64,000 nt of DNA from Rhizobium ecuadorense (GTDB lineage: Bacteria > Pseudomonadota > Alphaproteobacteria > Rhizobiales > Rhizobiaceae). Both the position numbers and the translations under genes were made by a program. The stretch is taken from positions 1-64,000 of the forward strand of contig NZ_LFIO01001579.1 of the NCBI RefSeq assembly GCF_001187535.1. The letters are read 5' to 3'. This document shows positions 15,728-22,633 of this stretch, in pieces (the first letter of the stretch is position 1; each line of letters opens with the position of its first letter). The notes beneath the pieces were generated by a model. It ran no database searches. It was given only the letters and a program-made list of their open reading frames with translations, and was not told where the DNA came from.

Positions 15728-16321
15728 TCACCCACCCTTCGCCCCGCGCAGCGCGATCAACCCCCGCCGCAGCCACAGCAATTGCTGCGGCGGCATCTGG
15801 CGCAGATGTTCGTAGTCCATCACCGTGACGTTGTAGACGGTGCTGCGCACCTGCGGGCCGTCCTGGCAGCGCAGCAGGATGGCCTGCAGGGCCATCATGC
15901 GGTTGCTGGCTTTGCGGGCGCGGTCGGCGAGGCTTTCGGTGACTTCGCCTTCGTGGCCCTTGACGGAAAAGAGCGATTGCGCCCTGGGGCTCGGGGCCGG
16001 GATGCCGGTGGTCTTGTGGTAGCGGGCCATGGCTTCGGCATAATCGTCGCCGGCCTGACGCTGCTCTGCGGAAATCAGGCCGTCGAGGAACATGCGCCCC
16101 AGCGTATAACCGGCAAACGGGCTCTTGACCGTCTCGTCGTCGACCGTTCGGCCGAAGCCGTGGATGCGGCGGCGGGCTGCTATCGCGACGCTGATATTGT
16201 CCTTCTCGGTCTCGAACGGCTTGATCTTGCCGCAGGGAAAACGCTCGACATTTGCCTTGCGCGGCCGGCCGGCGCCCTTGTTTGCCCGTGCCGTCTTTAT
16301 CTTGGCTGCTTTGCCACCCAT
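15728..16321 (-). CDS. Hypothetical protein, last gene of the phage-like leftward operon
   Basis: 197 aa from the ATG at 16321, with AGGAAGGA upstream and 14 nt after the LuxR-type gene. The N-terminus is basic (KIKTARANKGAGRPRK), as in DNA-binding tails. The middle contains GYTLGRMFLDGLISAEQRQAG and a region SNRMMALQAILLRC. I recognise no family. Tight spacing puts it in the same operon as the six HTH, zinc-ribbon and unknown genes upstream, so a phage-derived regulatory or packaging role is possible but unproven. Confidence 0.7.
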   Translation of the reverse strand: MGGKAAKIKTARANKGAGRPRKANVERFPCGKIKPFETEKDNISVAIAARRRIHGFGRTVDDETVKSPFAGYTLGRMFLDGLISAEQRQAGDDYAEAMARYHKTTGIPAPSPRAQSLFSVKGHEGEVTESLADRARKASNRMMALQAILLRCQDGPQVRSTVYNVTVMDYEHLRQMPPQQLLWLRRGLIALRGAKGG

Positions 16322-16335
16322 GCTGATTGTCCTTC

Positions 16336-16548
16336 CTATCGAATGATGCCGTTGCGCAGTGCGGCGGCGACCAGTGCGGTGTCTTTGAAGACGCCGAGTC
16401 TCGCCTTGGCGTTGGCGATGTGCGTGTTCACGGTGATGGGGGAGATGCCGAGAATGGTGCCGATCTCGGCGGCGGTCTTTCCGGCCGCCATCCAGCCGAT
16501 GATTTCGGTTTCGCGCGGGGTGATGTTGCTCTTGATGGCCGGGCTCAT
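16336..16548 (-). CDS. Stand-alone LuxR/GerE-type helix-turn-helix protein
   Basis: 70 aa, only the DNA-binding domain: ITPRETEIIGWMAAGKTAAE then IGTILGISPITVNTHIANAKARLG, a classic GerE helix-turn-helix without a receiver or autoinducer domain. Its ATG overlaps the stop codon of the GcrA-like gene (ATGA), indicating translational coupling. Such minimal LuxR proteins can act as small repressors or activators. It belongs to the leftward operon opposite the S24 repressor gene. Confidence 0.85.
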   Translation of the reverse strand: MSPAIKSNITPRETEIIGWMAAGKTAAEIGTILGISPITVNTHIANAKARLGVFKDTALVAAALRNGIIR

Positions 16549-16838
16549 GATGCCGGCCCATCGATGCAGGGCACCCGCGGCATCGTCACCTCAGCCCCCG
16601 ACAAGGTCACCCGCGTGACGCGGTCGGGGTGGCGGATCGGCGCCGGCGCCTCGCAGGTCTCGGGCGGCGGCCGGGTGACTTGCCGTGCGGGAAACCTGTC
16701 GCGGTTGCGGTGCGTCATGTTGATGACGGTGTTCTTCTTCGAGCCGAACAGATTGGCGATCTCTCTTGCCGAGAGCCCCTGCTGCCAGAGCTTCTGCGCC
16801 TTGACGATCTTGTCTTCCGTCCAGAACAGGCTTCTCAC
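16545..16838 (-). CDS. GcrA-like cell-cycle-type DNA-binding protein
   Basis: 97 aa from a GTG at 16838, chosen for the perfect GAGGAGG ribosome site 7 nt upstream. Residues 5-50 (WTEDKIVKAQKLWQQGLSAR then EIANLFG) match the N-terminal HTH of GcrA, the Caulobacter and Rhizobium regulator that recognises methylated GANTC promoters with sigma-70. The C-terminal region differs from canonical GcrA and is short, so this is a second, phage-type GcrA homologue; alphaproteobacterial phages commonly carry such copies. It overlaps both neighbours (GTGA upstream, ATGA downstream). Confidence 0.8.
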   Translation of the reverse strand: MRSLFWTEDKIVKAQKLWQQGLSAREIANLFGSKKNTVINMTHRNRDRFPARQVTRPPPETCEAPAPIRHPDRVTRVTLSGAEVTMPRVPCIDGPAS

Positions 16839-17272
16839 CTCAATGCCTCCTCGTGTCGTGTGGCTCGTGCAATGATCGGGTTGTCGGGAAACATTTTCGC
16901 CAGCTCCCGCTTGGCGCTGCGGCTGCCGTTCGCCGCGTCGCGCAGCAGCTGCATCTTGTAGGCCGCGACTTTCGGCTGCGGCGGCTCGGGCACCCGCTCG
17001 ACGCGCGGGCGGCTTTGCGCCGCGATGGCCGCCTGCTGCCGGCGGCATTGCTCGGCGAAACTGGCCGAGCTCGGTGCGAAGGCGCGGTTATGATTCCTGA
17101 CCTTTCCTGAAATGAAGAGTTTGGCCGCCTGCCAGACGGCCTCCAGCGGGATGCCGTCGATGGCCAGCAGATAGGCGCGGATCTGCATGTCGGGATCAAT
17201 GCCTGCGGATGCCGGGAAACCCGAAAGCATCCCCGCTATGATCTTCACCGGAGAGGAAATCTCTTGCGGCAT
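16835..17272 (-). CDS. Hypothetical protein, possibly phage replication-related
   Basis: 145 aa from the ATG at 17272, with GAAGGAC upstream. The pattern MQIRAYLLAIDGIPLEAVWQ, then AAKLFISG and FAPSSASFAEQC, is reminiscent of the N-terminal domain of phage helicase-loader or replisome-organiser proteins, which share a Y-x-x-x-L-x-x-(I/L)P pattern and an aPs motif. That is a resemblance by eye only. It overlaps the gene upstream by 77 nt and the GcrA-like gene downstream by 4 nt. Confidence 0.65.
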   Translation of the reverse strand: MPQEISSPVKIIAGMLSGFPASAGIDPDMQIRAYLLAIDGIPLEAVWQAAKLFISGKVRNHNRAFAPSSASFAEQCRRQQAAIAAQSRPRVERVPEPPQPKVAAYKMQLLRDAANGSRSAKRELAKMFPDNPIIARATRHEEALR

Positions 17273-17561
17273 CGACTGTCGTCCTTCTCGTGCTGCTGTT
17301 GATCGACCCGGCTTCCCTCGCCTTCTCCTTGAGGTACCAGTCACATTTGATCGCCTGCCAGCCGCGGAAGATCTGCATTTCGGCAGCACCGGCCGGATCG
17401 CCGGTCAGCAGATATTCTCTGGCCTGGATGCGGGCGGCGTAAGCGGTCAGCGGTTTCCTCAGCGTGCGCTTGCGATGCTCGATGACGGCTGCCGCCAGTT
17501 CCTCCCCCAGCACCGGGCTGAGGATGTCCATGATCTCCTTGCTCATTGTTTCCTTCGCCAT
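17196..17561 (-). CDS. Hypothetical protein of the phage-like operon
   Basis: 121 aa from MAKETMSKEIMD, with AAGGA 9 nt before the ATG. The middle part (VIEHRKRTLRKPLTAYAARI and EMQIFRGWQAIKCDWY) is basic and helical and looks like a DNA-binding or replication-accessory segment of phage type. I cannot name a family. The long overlap with the next gene (77 nt) and the 22-nt gap to the gene before are typical of compact phage operons. Confidence 0.65.
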   Translation of the reverse strand: MAKETMSKEIMDILSPVLGEELAAAVIEHRKRTLRKPLTAYAARIQAREYLLTGDPAGAAEMQIFRGWQAIKCDWYLKEKAREAGSINSSTRRTTVDAARDFLSGEDHSGDAFGFPGIRRH

Positions 17562-17583
17562 GCCGTTTTCCTTTTTCGGTCGC

Positions 17584-17898
17584 TCAAACGCACCGCCGTT
17601 GCCCGCCGGCAAAACTGACCGGCGTGCCGGGCCTGATGCGGTGGGGAAACCGGCGGATCTCCGCGCCGGCATGATCCTGCTGGACCGTGTCGCCCTTCTC
17701 GGCGCTTCGAAGCCGGTGGATCTCGATTTCCACCGAAGGCACCGACAGGCCGAGAATGGCTGCGATTTCGATATAGTCCCTGCCGGTGCGGAAGAGTTCG
17801 AGCGCGTTCATGCCGATGTGATCCTTCTTGTCCATTTCGCGCGCAGAACGCCGTTGCCGCCGAAGCGGGCGCTGCCTAGGTGCTTCATGTGAATTCAT
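17584..17898 (-). CDS. Small helix-turn-helix protein
   Basis: 104 aa from the ATG at 17898 (GGAG 8 nt upstream); a later start at 17835 (MDKKDHIG) is possible. The segment LFRTGRDYIEIAAILGLSVP followed by SVEIEIHRLR is a sigma-70-region-4/LuxR-like helix-turn-helix. The rest is arginine-rich and probably disordered. It is the third HTH gene of this leftward operon. Confidence 0.6.
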   Translation of the reverse strand: MNSHEAPRQRPLRRQRRSAREMDKKDHIGMNALELFRTGRDYIEIAAILGLSVPSVEIEIHRLRSAEKGDTVQQDHAGAEIRRFPHRIRPGTPVSFAGGQRRCV

Positions 17899-17988
17899 CG
17901 GCGGCGCTCCAGTCGTCTGCCGGGGCCGCCCGGGGGATAGCTGCCGGCGTCGCCGAGGGAGGGCGACGACGCCGGCCACCGAGAGCCG

Positions 17989-18222
17989 TCAGGGAGGGGT
18001 GAGGCTGTCGGGATTGGCGAGCGGCGACGCGCCGGGATCAGCGATCGGCCGCATCTCTTTCGGGCTGGTCTGCCGGCCGCAATTTTCGCAATGGCGCTCG
18101 ATCACCTCGGCGATCGACAGTGCCTTGCCGCAGTTCGGGCAGCCGGTGTAGCGGCAGCTTTCGCGCTGGAATGGGCCGACTGCTGCCTCTGTGGAGGCGC
18201 TGATGTTTTGGCTGTTTGTCAT
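17989..18222 (-). CDS. Zinc-ribbon protein, first gene of the leftward phage-like operon
   Basis: 77 aa. Two CxxC pairs, CPNCGK and CENCGR, about 16 residues apart, form a zinc ribbon; an extra Cys pair (CRYTGC) precedes them. The ATG at 18222 lies 8 nt from the operator at 18230-18246, so repressor bound there would block transcription of this gene and the six that follow. An ATG at 18237 inside the operator is a possible alternative start. In phages, zinc-ribbon proteins in this position are often Ogr- or DksA-like regulators, but this one is not clearly either. Confidence 0.65.
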   Translation of the reverse strand: MTNSQNISASTEAAVGPFQRESCRYTGCPNCGKALSIAEVIERHCENCGRQTSPKEMRPIADPGASPLANPDSLTPP

Positions 18223-18229
18223 GCGTATA

Positions 18230-18304
18230 GGGTACATTTAATACCCCGTACGTCAAGCAGAAAAAAGCATGACATATACCCTGAAATGGGGTATTTTTTA
18301 TATC
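18230..18304. promoter_or_regulatory. Divergent operator region of the S24 repressor
   Basis: Between the zinc-ribbon and repressor genes. One palindrome GGTA-N7-TACC lies at 18231-18245 (GGTACATTTAATACC). A degenerate copy GGTATTTTTTATATC at 18290-18304 directly abuts the repressor ATG. Between them is an inverse-order palindrome TACCC-N7-GGGTA at 18277-18293. This is the expected plan of a phage-type switch where the repressor controls itself and the opposing early operon. Confidence 0.75.
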
Positions 18305-18952
18305 ATGTTGAAAGATCAGGAACAATTTGAGCGCGAAGAACGCGCAAAGCGGCTGGTCATGGCCAGAAAGAACGCCGGCTTTGCCGGGCCGAAAGCGATC
18401 GTCGATCGGTTCGGCTGGAATGCGAATGTCTACAAGGCGCATGAGTCCGGCCGCAACGGCTTCGGCATCGCCGATGCGAAGAAGTACGCCCGCGCCTTCA
18501 AGGTCAATCTCAACTGGCTGCAGTTCGGAACCGGCAACGCGCTCGATCCGGATGAGCTGCCGGCTTCCGTCGCCGACGTGCCGAAGATCTCCTGGGTCAG
18601 CGCCGGCCAACTGAGCGAGCAGGCGCCGATCACCGACTTTTCCGAATTCCCGACCGTGGCCGCCCTCGATCTGCCCGATGGCGAATGGATTGCGCTGGAG
18701 GTCGAAGGCAATTCGATGAACAAGATCTCGCCGCCGGGCTCGATCATCTTCGTCAACCTGCGCGACAAGCGCCTGGCGCCGAACGCACTTTATGTCGTCG
18801 CCGACGAGACGGGGGCCGCCACCTACAAGCGCTATCGCCCGAACGACAACCCGCCCTTCCAGCCCGCCTCCTACGAGGATGTGCCGCCGCCGGAATTCCA
18901 GGGCGCCGTCACCATCGTCGGCCGCGTCCGCCGATCGATCATCGAGATGTAG
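18305..18952 (+). CDS. S24/LexA-like phage-type repressor with XRE helix-turn-helix
   Basis: 215 aa from the ATG at 18305. N-terminal residues 10-75 form an XRE-type helix-turn-helix (MARKNAGFAGPKAIVDRFGW, then YKAHESGRNGFG). The C-terminal half is a peptidase S24 (LexA/UmuD/CI) domain with catalytic Ser in EVEGNSMNKI and the candidate Lys in ATYKRYRPN. The cleavage site expected upstream (Ala/Cys-Gly) is not obvious, so inactivation may be by another route or the serine-lysine pair may be vestigial. It diverges from the seven-gene leftward operon across the 18230-18304 operators. Confidence 0.88.
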   Translation: MLKDQEQFEREERAKRLVMARKNAGFAGPKAIVDRFGWNANVYKAHESGRNGFGIADAKKYARAFKVNLNWLQFGTGNALDPDELPASVADVPKISWVSAGQLSEQAPITDFSEFPTVAALDLPDGEWIALEVEGNSMNKISPPGSIIFVNLRDKRLAPNALYVVADETGAATYKRYRPNDNPPFQPASYEDVPPPEFQGAVTIVGRVRRSIIEM

Positions 18953-19131
18953 GGATGAGATGCTTGTTGCGGATAATCCATATTTATCAAGGAAACCAAG
19001 ACGATCCGCCCTTCCTCTCGCGCCGGTAGAATCTGGTTTTACATCGCCACATCAACGATGCTTCTCCTGGCCTTCAGCGCCGCGCGCGAGATATACGGCC
19101 TGTAGGATCTCGCTCCGACCTCCCCATCCGT

Positions 19132-19215
19132 CGATCGGGATCACCGAGAGCGATCGGGATCACCGAGGGCGATCGGGATCACCGAGGGCGATCGGGATCA
19201 CCGAGGGCGATCGGG
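19132..19215. repeat. 19-bp tandem direct repeat, about 4.4 copies
   Basis: The unit CGATCGGGATCACCGAGGG starts at 19132, 19151, 19170, 19189 and, partly, 19208. The copies are nearly identical (one A/G change). The period is not a multiple of three, so the array is not coding. It lies in the gene-free stretch 18953-19817. Confidence 0.85.
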
Positions 19216-19724
19216 ACGCCCCTCCTCTGAAACGAGACATTGCGAAACTCCGGACACCACCCGCACGCCATTACCGAGGGGAATATCCTTCGGCAGCCCT
19301 CACACACGAATCGAAAATTCGGCGACCCCAAGGTCCGGGCTCGATCACCGCGGCGGCGATTCCGATCTCGTTACGCCCTCCCGTTTTTTCTCGCAGCATC
19401 AGACTCCAAGAGAACCTTGTTTTCTATCTCTCTGTCTTCGCTCCTGAAGGCTGGTGAGGGAGGGTTCCGGCCAAAGCTTCCCCCTACCCCATGAGCAAAG
19501 CCCATGAAGCCGGGAGAGCATTGGCCAGGTCCTGAAGGCCGGAGCCGGGATGGGACACGTGCCAGAGGGGCCATTCGCTTCGCCCTCGTCCTGATTTTCT
19601 GACAGCGCACTTAAGGACTTTCGCTTCCCGCGCCGCTGGGCTTCGTCAGCTCGGGAGTTGCACCCGGTCGCCCAATCACTGGCGACAGACATACGCCTAT
19701 GATTCGTACCTCGTCAATCTGTAA

Positions 19725-19774
19725 GGTATTTTTAATACCCTAGATGGTTGACGCAATGAGGTATTATATATACC
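19725..19774. promoter_or_regulatory. Two GGTA-N7-TACC operators before the second phage-like unit
   Basis: Palindromes GGTATTTTTAATACC (19725-19739) and GGTATTATATATACC (19760-19774), centres 35 bp apart, share half-sites and spacing with the operator at 18231-18245. They lie 44-93 nt before the gene at 19818. The surrounding DNA is AT-rich, as in a promoter. Confidence 0.7.
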
Positions 19775-19817
19775 TTAGTCTCGCAAGCCGATCAGCGGCG
19801 CGTGAGAGGACGGGGTG

Positions 19818-20081
19818 ATGCAGCACATCCGCAATATCGAAACCGTGGAAAGCAGGCGCGACGCCCGCTGGAATGGCGCGCTGGGGATGGGAGACTGCAG
19901 CGCCTATATGGCGATCGAGGCCCAGCGCATGGGCGCCCTCGGCTTTGCCTTCCTCCACCGTCCCGAACATTCGGTGCGCGGCCCCTCCTGGCTGCGCGGC
20001 GCCCGCGCCTCCGTCGAGGAACATTACCGCTATGCCCGGCAGATTATGGGCATGACCGATCATGATCAGCTTTACGCCTGA
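19818..20081 (+). CDS. Hypothetical protein under candidate S24-repressor control
   Basis: 87 aa from the ATG at 19818, with GACGGGG upstream. Soluble and rich in Arg, His and Met (RNIETVESRRDARWNGALG, EAQRMGALGFAFLHR). No recognised domain. Two GGTA-N7-TACC operators precede it and the next gene follows after 11 nt, so the two form a short transcription unit probably repressed by the S24 protein. Confidence 0.65.
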   Translation: MQHIRNIETVESRRDARWNGALGMGDCSAYMAIEAQRMGALGFAFLHRPEHSVRGPSWLRGARASVEEHYRYARQIMGMTDHDQLYA

Positions 20082-20092
20082 GGGGAGCGGAA

Positions 20093-20320
20093 ATGTCTGC
20101 CGATTGCATCGTCAAGGCCTTTTCCGGCTGCGCCTGCCGGCCGGGTGATTGCGCGGAAAAGCCCCTCACCCCGGCGCCGGTAAGCTTCATCTCCTGGCGC
20201 AAGCAGGCCATCACCTGCCTCGCCTTCGGCTTCCTCGCGGCGATCGTCACGGCCGCCTGGATGGAGACGCGGTTCAAGAGCGAGGACCTCGCCAATCAGG
20301 AGCAGGTGTCATGGAAGTAA
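20093..20320 (+). CDS. Small cysteine-containing membrane protein
   Basis: 75 aa, preceded by GAGGGGAGCGGAA, an excellent ribosome site. The N-terminus carries a cysteine cluster (CIVKAFSGCACRPGDC), followed by one membrane helix (ITCLAFGFLAAIVTAAW) and a charged tail. Second gene of the unit starting at 19818. No family recognised. Confidence 0.65.
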   Translation: MSADCIVKAFSGCACRPGDCAEKPLTPAPVSFISWRKQAITCLAFGFLAAIVTAAWMETRFKSEDLANQEQVSWK

Positions 20321-20346: not shown

Positions 20347-20586
20347 TCAGGAACTATATTTGATATCGCTCGCCTTGGCCGCGGTAATGAAGGCCCGGCG
20401 CACCTGCTCGGGCTCGGCGGCATCGTTGAACACATCAAGCACAAGCCGCTCGGCAACCTTGGCCGCCGGCGTCTGGTCGGGCCAGTCATTCAGCAAAGCG
20501 TTGCCGGCCTGGACGACATTATAGACCGTCCTCACCTTGCCATTGATGGTGATCTTCACCGGTTTGAAGCTTCGTCGCTTGCTCAT
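20347..20586 (-). CDS. DUF982-family protein
   Basis: 79 aa from MSKRRSFKPVKI. The pattern FKPV at the start, VVQAGNALLNDWPDQTPAAK in the middle and EQVRRAFITAAKASDI at the end is that of DUF982, a small-protein family expanded in Rhizobium and relatives, with no known function. It converges on the membrane-protein gene, 26 nt away, and probably lies outside the phage-like module. Confidence 0.8.
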   Translation of the reverse strand: MSKRRSFKPVKITINGKVRTVYNVVQAGNALLNDWPDQTPAAKVAERLVLDVFNDAAEPEQVRRAFITAAKASDIKYSS

Positions 20587-20862: not shown

Positions 20863-22446
20863 ATGCTGAAAAATCATATAGTTCTGGCGGTTGGCGCGCT
20901 TAGTGTTTTCGTGCCTCACGCAGTAGCCATTGCCGATCCGCTTCCCAAAGGTTTTGAACGCCACAAATTCAACGGATCGGTCAGACCGGAGGTCAAGGAC
21001 GGCGTGACCCGCTTTCAGATATTCGACCGTCAATGTTCCAATGTCGACTATGGAGATGGACGCGGTGAAAATGATTGCCGCAATGGCAACGTCCGCTCAA
21101 CGATCCGCTATACGCGAGACATGAAGGTTGGCGAAAGCGTCGAATACAAGTTTGATTTCCGGCTCGATCCGACTTTTGCCTACAAAGGCTGGCACAACAA
21201 CTCCGCCAACGGCTTTTATCCCGATGGCTGGGACAGCCATTTGCGTTTCGCCTCCTGGGAAGGACCGGCAGTCCACAATTTCATCTACATGCTGAAAGCC
21301 GACACGCGCAACGGCGTGAACTTTCTCGCCCGCCAATGCCAAAAACCGGAGGATTTCGGCAAATGGGCGACATTCTCGCTGAAAATCCGATGGGCAAACG
21401 ATGAGGGCGGATGGGTTACGGCCAGCTGCGACAACAAGGTGATCTACGCCGCCGAAGGCGAAGCGACCAACCAGGCCCCGCATTGCTGGGAATCGAACGA
21501 GTGCGAGCCGCAATCGAACCGCGACCCGAAATCATTCAACTTCATTCTCGGCCCGGTGATGATGGGTTGGGGGCATGACTGGAAGACCTATGACAATCAT
21601 ACGTCTCAGTTTGACGTGGTGCAGCCGGAGGGTATCCACATCGATGTCCGCAATGTCAGCGTGACCCGCGGTGTCAGCGACTATTCGGCCGAACAAGCAG
21701 GTTTGCTCAAGAGGCTGCAGCAGCAACTGGCTCATTTGGGCTGCAAGCCGGGAAATGTCGAGGGCAAGCCTGACAAGACAACACGGCAAGCCGCGCTTTC
21801 CTGCCGCAAGTTCGACAGCGGTTCGCTTCCCGAGGCGCTCAACCTCACGACGCTGCAGGCCTTCGCTGACGCCTATGCCAAGCCGGAGACCGCAAGTCTG
21901 CCTTCAGGCAACGCCGCGGCTGGCGTCGAAAACGTTTCGTCAAAACCGAGGACCTATATCAAGCTGGGCGAAATGCTTGCCATGAAGACTGGCAAGGACA
22001 CCAAGGTGAATTCCAACTTCTTCGGCAAGATCAAAGGTGCCAAGAAGGGGCAGAACGAGCTGGACTTCATTATTCTGGGTCAGTTCGACTACACGGACAA
22101 CAGTTTCAGCCAGCTGTCATTTCTCCTGCAGGACAATCTCTCCAAGGCCGAAGTGAATGCAGCCGCCAAATGCGGCTATGGGACGATCAGATTTCCAGAC
22201 GGCACAGATCATTTGGAGATCGGCATGCAACGTTCAGGAAACACCTTCTCGTCCCCGCCAAGAACTGACTGCTTGATTCAAGCGCTCGGCAAACGACCGG
22301 CATCGCAGGTTCCCTACCTCACCACAGGGTTTGCCAATCTGGCGAAATCAATGGTGTCCGACGGCGGCTGGAAGAAACTGAGGCATGAAGGTTTGAAGAT
22401 TTTTGTGAAACGTGTTGCGGATGGCGAGATCACAGTCGGCGGCTGA
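20863..22446 (+). CDS. Exported polysaccharide-lyase-like protein with C-terminal modules
   Basis: 527 aa from the ATG at 20863 (GGGAGAAAG upstream). A signal peptide (LAVGALSVFVPHAVAIA) is followed by about 250 residues with the pattern of heparin-lyase-I/PL20-type jelly rolls (RYTRDMKVGESVEYKFDFRL, YKGWHNNSANGFYPDGWD). Then comes a peptidoglycan-binding-like segment (LLKRLQQQLAHLGCKPGNVE) with CKPG/SC cysteines, and a C-terminal region of about 170 residues with no recognised fold. It should act in the periplasm or outside on a uronic-acid polysaccharide. Several Cys pairs suggest disulfides. The stretch 20587-20862 before it holds no gene that I can see. Confidence 0.7.
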   Translation: MLKNHIVLAVGALSVFVPHAVAIADPLPKGFERHKFNGSVRPEVKDGVTRFQIFDRQCSNVDYGDGRGENDCRNGNVRSTIRYTRDMKVGESVEYKFDFRLDPTFAYKGWHNNSANGFYPDGWDSHLRFASWEGPAVHNFIYMLKADTRNGVNFLARQCQKPEDFGKWATFSLKIRWANDEGGWVTASCDNKVIYAAEGEATNQAPHCWESNECEPQSNRDPKSFNFILGPVMMGWGHDWKTYDNHTSQFDVVQPEGIHIDVRNVSVTRGVSDYSAEQAGLLKRLQQQLAHLGCKPGNVEGKPDKTTRQAALSCRKFDSGSLPEALNLTTLQAFADAYAKPETASLPSGNAAAGVENVSSKPRTYIKLGEMLAMKTGKDTKVNSNFFGKIKGAKKGQNELDFIILGQFDYTDNSFSQLSFLLQDNLSKAEVNAAAKCGYGTIRFPDGTDHLEIGMQRSGNTFSSPPRTDCLIQALGKRPASQVPYLTTGFANLAKSMVSDGGWKKLRHEGLKIFVKRVADGEITVGG

Positions 22447-22556: not shown

Positions 22557-22633
22557 TGGTCGGAGTGGAGTGATTCGAACACTCGACCCCCACGTCCCGA
22601 ACGTGGTGCGCTACCAGACTGCGCTACACTCCG
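22557..22633 (-). tRNA. tRNA-Pro (anticodon CGG), CCA encoded
   Basis: 77 nt on the minus strand. Acceptor arms CGGAGTG and CACTCCG, anticodon stem CCACG/CGTGG enclosing TTCGGGA (anticodon CGG), T-arm with TTCGAAT, discriminator A and encoded CCA. A terminator follows directly. Confidence 0.95.

What the first reader, a model, noticed from the sequence alone, without database searches (positions are those of the whole stretch)
15728..20320. Compact phage-type switch without structural genes, perhaps a domesticated regulatory island
A divergent S24 repressor, its palindromic operators and seven small overlapping leftward genes (zinc ribbon, three HTH proteins including a GcrA homologue, two possible replication-type proteins, one unknown) make a complete early-control region. 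No integrase, capsid, tail or lysis gene is visible on either side. With GcrA and LuxR-type factors it could have been kept to switch host genes. The switch layout is seen in the sequence; domestication is inference.
Basis: partly seen in the sequence, partly recalled or inferred. Interest (0 to 1): 0.75.

Follow-up and report, generated by a model that had tools for sequence, protein, structure and literature searches.

The report
Control region of a domesticated Rhizobium prophage
This cluster is the preserved on/off switch of an ancient virus that bean- and clover-nodulating Rhizobium species have kept for most of their history; the matching virus-shell genes sit further along the chromosome, and next to the switch lies an almost unchanging structured RNA that matched no family in the RNA library searched.

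Summary
The switch is real but is not free-standing. An S24 repressor (18305-18952), three operators and two divergent operons form the immunity region of an old prophage at tRNA-Pro(CGG). The cassette is collinear and intact in 44 of 50 genomes of the R. leguminosarum/etli clade and in none of 97 outside it. Its genes show purifying selection (repressor dN/dS 0.04). Its Cro gene is lost.

"No structural genes" holds only inside the window. In complete relatives a full virion module (TerS, TerL, portal, capsid, neck, endolysin) lies 20-33 kb beyond the leftmost gene; in this genome it is at the end of contig C2. It is almost entirely open in 53 public loci (capsid dN/dS 0.02). No integrase was detected. 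Best reading: a domesticated, DNA-damage-inducible, particle-coding element (GTA- or PBSX-like). Particle function is untested.

It is ~50-fold less diverged than adjacent intergenic DNA, matches no Rfam family, and recurs in many Rhizobiales phages beside an operator, mostly pointing at the repressor. Published transposon data suggest the repressor is essential in strain 3841, which has lost the virion block.

The parts
15728..16324 (-). g1: 198-aa protein; in Rhizobium phages it is the last early gene before the packaging genes
   Evidence: 64-69% aa identity to RHph phages, order; dN/dS 0.13, no stops in 37 genomes; AF2 model pLDDT 69, no PDB match at E<=0.001, two uncharacterised phage proteins
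16336..16548 (-). g2: 70-aa LuxR/GerE HTH protein
   Evidence: PF00196 55.4 bits; dN/dS 0.18
16545..16838 (-). g3: 97-aa GcrA-like HTH protein (not the cell-cycle GcrA)
   Evidence: PF07750 28.7 vs cutoff 26.9; NF050816 30.8 vs 280
16835..17275 (-). g4: early phage protein of unknown function
   Evidence: 46-61% to RHph phages; dN/dS 0.26
17196..17561 (-). g5: small protein overlapping g4
   Evidence: dN/dS 0.35; 0 stops in 37
17584..17898 (-). g6: small protein with weak HTH
   Evidence: sub-threshold Sigma70_r4_2; dN/dS 0.31
17989..18222 (-). g7: zinc-ribbon protein whose first residues are the relic of the phage Cro gene
   Evidence: N-terminus aligned to Cro of intact prophage G148, best in L071; dN/dS 0.6
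18230..18246 (.). operator OR, GGGTACATTTAATACCC
   Evidence: same place in prophages L190/L100/L189
18305..18952 (+). S24 (CI/LexA-type) repressor, 215 aa, with Ala-Gly site and Ser/Lys dyad retained
   Evidence: PF00717; full length in 35 of 37, the other two differing only in the search string; dN/dS 0.04
19453..19677 (-). ~225-nt structured RNA, near-invariant in the clade; same family in many Rhizobiales phages
   Evidence: mean pairwise distance 0.007 vs 0.40 in adjacent DNA; covariation; no Rfam match above threshold
19689..19717 (-). predicted promoter of the RNA (TTGACG -35 box at 19717-19712)
   Evidence: 97% conserved; operator centre 14-15 bp upstream in phages with unrelated operators
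19724..19740 (.). operator OL1, placed symmetrically between two divergent TTGACG boxes
19759..19775 (.). operator OL2, overlapping the predicted -10 of the r1-r2 promoter
19818..20081 (+). r1: 87-aa protein, first gene of the second operon
   Evidence: dN/dS 0.26, 37/37 open
20093..20320 (+). r2: 75-aa protein; homologue in the integrase-side operon of phage RHph_Y25
   Evidence: 54-58%; dN/dS 0.37
20347..20586 (-). r3: DUF982 protein, always adjacent; may be host cargo
   Evidence: PF06169; dN/dS 0.08
22557..22633 (-). tRNA-Pro(CGG), integration site; its 3' part equals the attP region of RHph_Y25
   Evidence: 56 nt at 96% beside the RHph_Y25 integrase

Best explanation
The region is the immunity and early-control cassette of a prophage that entered tRNA-Pro(CGG) in the ancestor of the R. 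leguminosarum/etli clade and was domesticated. Shown by sequence: no homologue of the two phage integrases tested was found in the island stretches read from the eight complete genomes; short integrase relics lie beside the tRNA in a few genomes. Cro is lost. Host cargo separates the early genes from the virion genes. Repressor, OR, OL1/OL2, both early operons, the RNA and the virion module (TerS-TerL-portal-scaffold-capsid-neck-S74-endolysin) are retained under purifying selection. Inferred working: the repressor holds OR and OL shut. DNA damage makes it cleave itself (site and catalytic residues retained). The leftward operon (GcrA-like, LuxR-like, g1) and r1-r2 then fire. g1-g3, which in phages lie directly upstream of the packaging genes, then switch on the remote virion module, giving phage-like particles and lysis in some cells. 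Without Cro there is no stable lytic state. The RNA is read towards the repressor gene from a promoter with OL1 fixed just upstream of its -35 box, so it is probably controlled, perhaps activated, by the bound repressor. Particle production, and whether the particles act as a gene transfer agent or as a killer particle, are not shown.
For: Phage origin: g4-g3-g2-g1 order and next-to-terminase position in RHph phages; RHph_Y25 attP equals tRNA-Pro; phage 16-3 is known to use tRNA-Pro(CGG) (Semsey 2002, cited in PMC8631192). Same immunity region in an intact prophage: G148 has the repressor at 89%, the same OR and OL pair, Cro, the RNA and structural genes. One acquisition and vertical descent: 44 of 50 in the clade vs 0 of 97 outside; Mantel p=0.001 for seven cassette genes. 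Selection. Cro relic. Virion module in the same island; 53 loci almost all open, capsid dN/dS 0.021. Essential repressor: the 3841 repressor ORF has 9 TA sites and its neighbour 6, as for RL1116 (9 TA, essential class in both media) and RL1117 (6 TA) in PMC5118466; by a rough ORF count it lies 31 ORFs after ppdK=RL1086, where 30 are expected.
Against: Two of eight complete genomes (3841 = G001, and G078) have lost most of the virion block yet keep the cassette, so the cassette may be kept for another reason. Prophages with 90-99% identical capsids exist, so capsid conservation may partly reflect exchange or ordinary phage constraint. Cassette and virion block are separated by 20-33 kb of cargo, and in this genome lie on different contigs, so the functional link is inferred. 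No expression or particle data were available.
Confidence: 0.66

Rival explanations
1. Immunity-only module: the cassette is kept because its repressor (and perhaps the RNA) blocks superinfecting phages of the same immunity group; the other genes are passengers.
For: Prophages with 86-89% identical repressor and near-identical operators exist; the cassette persists where the virion block is deleted.
Against: g1 and g2, expressed only on derepression in this model, are under strong purifying selection (0.13, 0.18); autocleavage residues are kept; the repressor seems essential in culture without phage; virion genes are selected in most genomes.
Confidence: 0.2
2. Addiction cassette: derepressed cassette products are toxic, so loss of the repressor kills and the genomic island is stabilised. 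This is compatible with the best explanation but would by itself account for conservation of the cassette.
For: The repressor appears essential in 3841, which lacks the virion and lysis block at this locus, so toxicity would come from the early genes or the RNA.
Against: Six in-clade genomes lack the cassette; RL1116 identity is inferred; no toxin family was recognised.
Confidence: 0.25
3. Free-standing domesticated switch that directly controls host genes.
For: Strong conservation of repressor, operators and regulators.
Against: Operator-like sites with A/T-rich spacers occur only in the cassette in 12 genomes; virion module in the same island.
Confidence: 0.07
4. Ordinary decaying prophage remnant.
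For: Integrase not found, Cro and DNA-metabolism genes missing; 4 of 53 portal genes with stops; g7 nearly neutral.
Against: Open reading frames in nearly all genomes at dS 0.3-0.4, dN/dS mostly 0.02-0.35, near-invariant RNA.
Confidence: 0.06

Closest known systems
Immunity region of lambda-type phages (CI, OR, OL)
   Same: Autocleavable-type S24 repressor between OR and a distal OL pair; two divergent early operons
   Different: No Cro; an RNA transcribed from OL towards the repressor gene; integrase not found; fixed in the chromosome of many species
Temperate Rhizobium phages RHph_Y25, RHph_I3_18 and relatives
   Same: g4-g3-g2-g1 order before the packaging genes; attP at tRNA-Pro in RHph_Y25; distant virion homologues in RHph_I3_18
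   Different: Repressor only ~28% identical or undetected; none of the island's operators found in them; they carry integrase and DNA-metabolism genes
Gene transfer agents (RcGTA/CcGTA, BaGTA)
   Same: Virion cluster kept under selection, no integrase detected, vertical inheritance, regulators away from the cluster
   Different: Mx8/Sf6-type podoviral genes; controlled by a phage CI-type repressor (comparison with GTA proteins rests on general knowledge); packaging of host DNA untested
PBSX-type defective prophages
   Same: SOS-type repressor controlling conserved virion and lysis genes without a detected integrase
   Different: No evidence of particles or killing here
Phage regulatory RNAs (P4/P1 C4, HK022 put)
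   Same: Phage RNA in the immunity/early region
   Different: ~225 nt with crossing helices; no Rfam match; mostly convergent with the repressor rather than leader of the early operon

Membership tests
Lambda-type immunity region | S24 repressor with cleavage site and Ser/Lys dyad | tested here: met
   (sequence only)
Lambda-type immunity region | OR and OL operators of one specificity | tested here: met
Lambda-type immunity region | Cro opposite the repressor | tested here: not met
   Cro truncated to an N-terminal relic in g7
Gene transfer agent | Virion genes kept under purifying selection in host lineages | tested here: met
Gene transfer agent | No integrase or replication genes | tested here: inconclusive
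   no homologue of the two RHph integrases in the stretches read from eight complete genomes; other integrase families not scanned; the larger islands only partly read
Gene transfer agent | Vertical inheritance at one locus | tested here: met
Gene transfer agent | Particles that package random host DNA | not testable with these tools
   needs particle sequencing
PBSX-type defective prophage | Inducible non-infectious particles that kill | not testable with these tools
   needs induction assay
Cell-cycle GcrA | Full-length GcrA equivalog score | tested here: not met
   g3 30.8 bits vs 280
Any Rfam RNA family (for the RNA) | Score at or above the gathering threshold | tested here: not met

The most novel reading that the evidence does not exclude
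An independent, podovirus-derived gene transfer agent of the R. leguminosarum/etli clade, governed by a Cro-less phage repressor circuit and accompanied by a previously unrecognised class of pseudoknotted phage RNA controlled from the repressor's OL operator.
Probability: 0.3. Interest if true: 0.92.

Novelty: new variant of a known kind. Interest (0 to 1): 0.78.

Why it matters
If true, many nodulating Rhizobium species carry an inherited, switch-controlled particle system: a possible route of gene exchange, or warfare, in agriculturally important bacteria. It would make the passage from prophage to gene transfer agent testable, because some genomes keep the whole element, some only the switch, and some nothing. 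The RNA is a well-defined unknown: more constrained than the neighbouring protein genes, found in many unrelated immunity groups, and ready for genetic test.

Tried and rejected
Host-gene regulon of the repressor: exact operator search in 12 genomes gave only cassette sites with A/T-rich spacers; one recurring match outside the cassette (AGGTATAGAGCGTACCC or one variant, 6 genomes) has a GC-containing spacer and was set aside as a probable chance match.

Reading the RNA as a protein (97-aa ORF 19399-19692): rejected, because the frame is broken or restarted in several species although the nucleotides are nearly invariant.

Rfam identity: only models far below their thresholds, mostly animal microRNAs. 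The single-sequence fold is not better than shuffles (z=-0.22), so structure rests on covariation, not energy.

Cobalamin riboswitch, RNase P and hammerhead resemblance noticed by eye: no Rfam support.

19-bp tandem repeat at 19132-19207 as iterons: not conserved.

g1 as a DUF6456 (GafA-type) activator: no Pfam hit; one weak structural neighbour only.

Literature searches for a known phage RNA or a known domesticated prophage of this kind in Rhizobium found nothing matching in the open-access library; subscription papers were not covered.

Full report
WHAT IS THERE. The window lies at bases 1-64000 of contig C1071 (68.0 kb) of a 7.4-Mb genome in 1891 contigs. Leftward from the repressor run g7, g6, g5, g4, g3, g2, g1 (18222 to 15728). 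The repressor itself is 18305-18952 (+); the upstream ATG at 18269 is not a real start, because relatives have in-frame stops after it. Rightward beyond a 0.87-kb gap are r1 and r2, then a DUF982 gene (r3) and tRNA-Pro(CGG) at 22557-22633. Operators with the pattern RGGTAYNNNNNRTACCY lie at 18230-18246 (OR), 19724-19740 (OL1) and 19759-19775 (OL2), and are conserved across species.

CONSERVATION AND HISTORY. g1 searched in 148 same-genus genomes and a neighbouring core gene (g22.9) searched in the same set give a clean split. All 44 genomes with g1 at 87% or more are among the 50 with g22.9 at 90% or more; none of the 97 others has it, although four carry a distant g1 (61-69%) and one a weak match. 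In 36 fetched loci the cassette is complete and collinear. Named carriers include R. johnstonii 3841, R. leguminosarum, R. phaseoli, R. anhuiense, R. ruizarguesonis, R. laguerreae and R. esperanzae. The six in-clade genomes without g1 also lack the repressor. Pairwise distances of seven cassette genes follow those of g22.9 (r 0.44-0.69, Mantel p 0.001). Median dN/dS: repressor 0.04 (nine sequences), r3 0.08, g1 0.13, g2 0.18, g4 0.26, r1 0.26, g3 0.28, g6 0.31, g5 0.35, r2 0.37, g7 0.60; flanking genes 0.11-0.20. Overlapping frames (g4/g5) and simple pairwise counting make these approximate.

PHAGE ORIGIN. Rhizobium phages RHph_I3_18, RHph_Y25 and relatives carry g4-g3-g2-g1 homologues in this order at the end of the early operon, just before the terminase. 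r2 has a homologue in the integrase-side operon of RHph_Y25. Beside its integrase RHph_Y25 has 56 nt, 96% identical to the 3' part of this tRNA-Pro. Phage 16-3 is known to integrate in tRNA-Pro(CGG) (Semsey et al. 2002, cited in PMC8631192). The closest repressors outside the clade's island are 86-89% identical and sit in prophages. G148 (IMG/VR 2738541293_000002, 41.9 kb) has the repressor, OR, the OL pair 34 bp apart, Cro and structural genes. At the place of Cro the island has g7, whose first residues are a relic of Cro; in L071 FANDLGI aligns with FADDLGV of Cro. So the immunity region is that of a G148-type phage, the g4-g1 block that of an RHph-type phage, and Cro is gone.

THE MISSING STRUCTURAL GENES. 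In island-free genomes and outgroups tRNA-Pro is followed within a few kilobases by a core block. In complete carriers this block is 44-113 kb from the cassette, so the cassette is the tRNA-proximal end of a large genomic island. That island contains, in phage order and on one strand, TerS (Sf6-like), TerL, portal, scaffold, major capsid (Mx8-like), SU10-type adaptor, a neck/amidase protein, an S74 protein, endolysin and further genes. TerS is 20.3 kb (G009), 24.5 kb (G112), 29.8 kb (G007) and 33.4 kb (G076) from g1, with host cargo in between. In this genome the module is at the end of contig C2. Six of eight complete genomes keep the module. 3841 (G001) and G078 have lost nearly all of it between TerS and a terminal small gene. 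Among 53 loci of this type in IMG/VR, TerL is full-length open in 52, portal in 49 (4 with stops) and neck in 48 of 50; capsid dN/dS is 0.021 at dS 0.24. That collection favours loci recognised as viral, so the open fraction may be overstated. Twenty related prophage loci (capsid 90-99%, TerL 87-89%) without g1, repressor or RNA nearby form a separate group. No homologue of the two RHph integrases was found in the island stretches searched; integrase fragments sit beside the tRNA in a few genomes.

HOW IT PROBABLY WORKS. The repressor keeps an Ala-Gly site (VSAGQL), the serine (GNSMN) and the lysine (TYKRY) in all aligned island copies, so RecA-stimulated self-cleavage is likely (established for S24 repressors; inferred here). 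OL2 overlaps the predicted -10 of the r1-r2 promoter, OR faces g7, and OL1 sits symmetrically between two divergent TTGACG boxes. Loss of Cro should leave an inducible but not bistable switch. g1-g3 are the natural candidates to activate the virion module because of their place in phages; this is inference. Exact operator matches with A/T-rich spacers occur only in the cassette in 12 genomes, so direct control of other host promoters by the repressor is unlikely. In the transposon study of 3841 (PMC5118466) RL1116 has 9 TA sites, insertion density 0.11 and the essential class in both media, and RL1117 has 6 TA sites. The 3841 repressor ORF has 9 TA sites and the next ORF 6, and by a rough ORF count the repressor lies 31 ORFs after ppdK=RL1086, where 30 are expected. 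The tag identity is therefore likely but inferred. As 3841 lacks the virion block at this locus, the harm of derepression there would come from the cassette itself.

THE RNA. Window 19677-19453 (minus strand) has 17 variable columns in 226 across 37 genomes and mean pairwise distance 0.007, against 0.40 in the adjacent intergenic DNA. It is present in all 44 carriers. Homologues occur in 14 IMG/VR contigs, in G148, in genomes of other families of the order, in two phages recorded from Synechococcus cultures, and in a Pseudochrobactrum plasmid prophage beside an S24 repressor and a carph-isopro (Cro-type) gene. In most phage loci read, it points towards the repressor and away from the early operon; two genome loci (L272, L273) differ. 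An operator-like palindrome centres 14-15 bp upstream of TTGAC in most copies with that box, although the palindromes differ in sequence. A structure with crossing helices gives 97.2% paired cells (shuffled 91.6, 0/500; slid versions 45-57%) and 54 double changes (shuffled 18) over 18 homologues; a wider set gives 94.2%. The structure was derived partly from these alignments, so slid-version contrasts lean towards it; the double changes are the stronger evidence. Its energy alone is not unusual. Two UUCAG-like repeats flank the long hairpin and change together in some phages. No Rfam family reaches its threshold. Transcription was not tested.

VERDICT.

Noticed in passing
L391-L397, for example L391:6118-7148: In seven loci the capsid gene of the virion module is interrupted exactly at codon 67 by 1031 nt with a group I intron match (RF00028, 40.8 bits, E 1.3e-8, below the gathering score 50), while the exons stay 97-100% identical: likely a self-splicing intron in a domesticated capsid gene.
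   Followed up: partly
window 19132-19207: Four tandem 19-bp repeats CGATCGGGATCACCGAGGG between repressor and RNA; not conserved in relatives, similar sequence elsewhere in the genome.
   Followed up: partly
L170:7459-7503: A 45-nt exact copy of the tRNA-Pro 3' end 3.8 kb from the tRNA, with integrase fragments: another, independent integration remnant at the same tRNA in an island-free genome.
   Followed up: partly
window 20869-22443: Polysaccharide-lyase-like protein with a sub-threshold peptidoglycan-binding domain between cassette and tRNA-Pro, present in only some carriers.
   Followed up: no
L121, L123, L127-L131: Bartonella loci carry a 52-54% identical repressor and, in some, weak g4 and g1 homologues; whether these touch the Bartonella GTA/run-off replication loci was not examined.
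   Followed up: no
L133: A contig labelled Bacillus subtilis SK6B4 carries a 48% identical alphaproteobacterial-type repressor; probably contamination or mislabelling.
   Followed up: no
G000:C1127:41454-41470 and five other genomes: AGGTATAGAGCGTACCC (or one variant) recurs at one site per genome, outside the largest contig, in several species; matches the relaxed operator pattern but has a GC-containing spacer.
   Followed up: no
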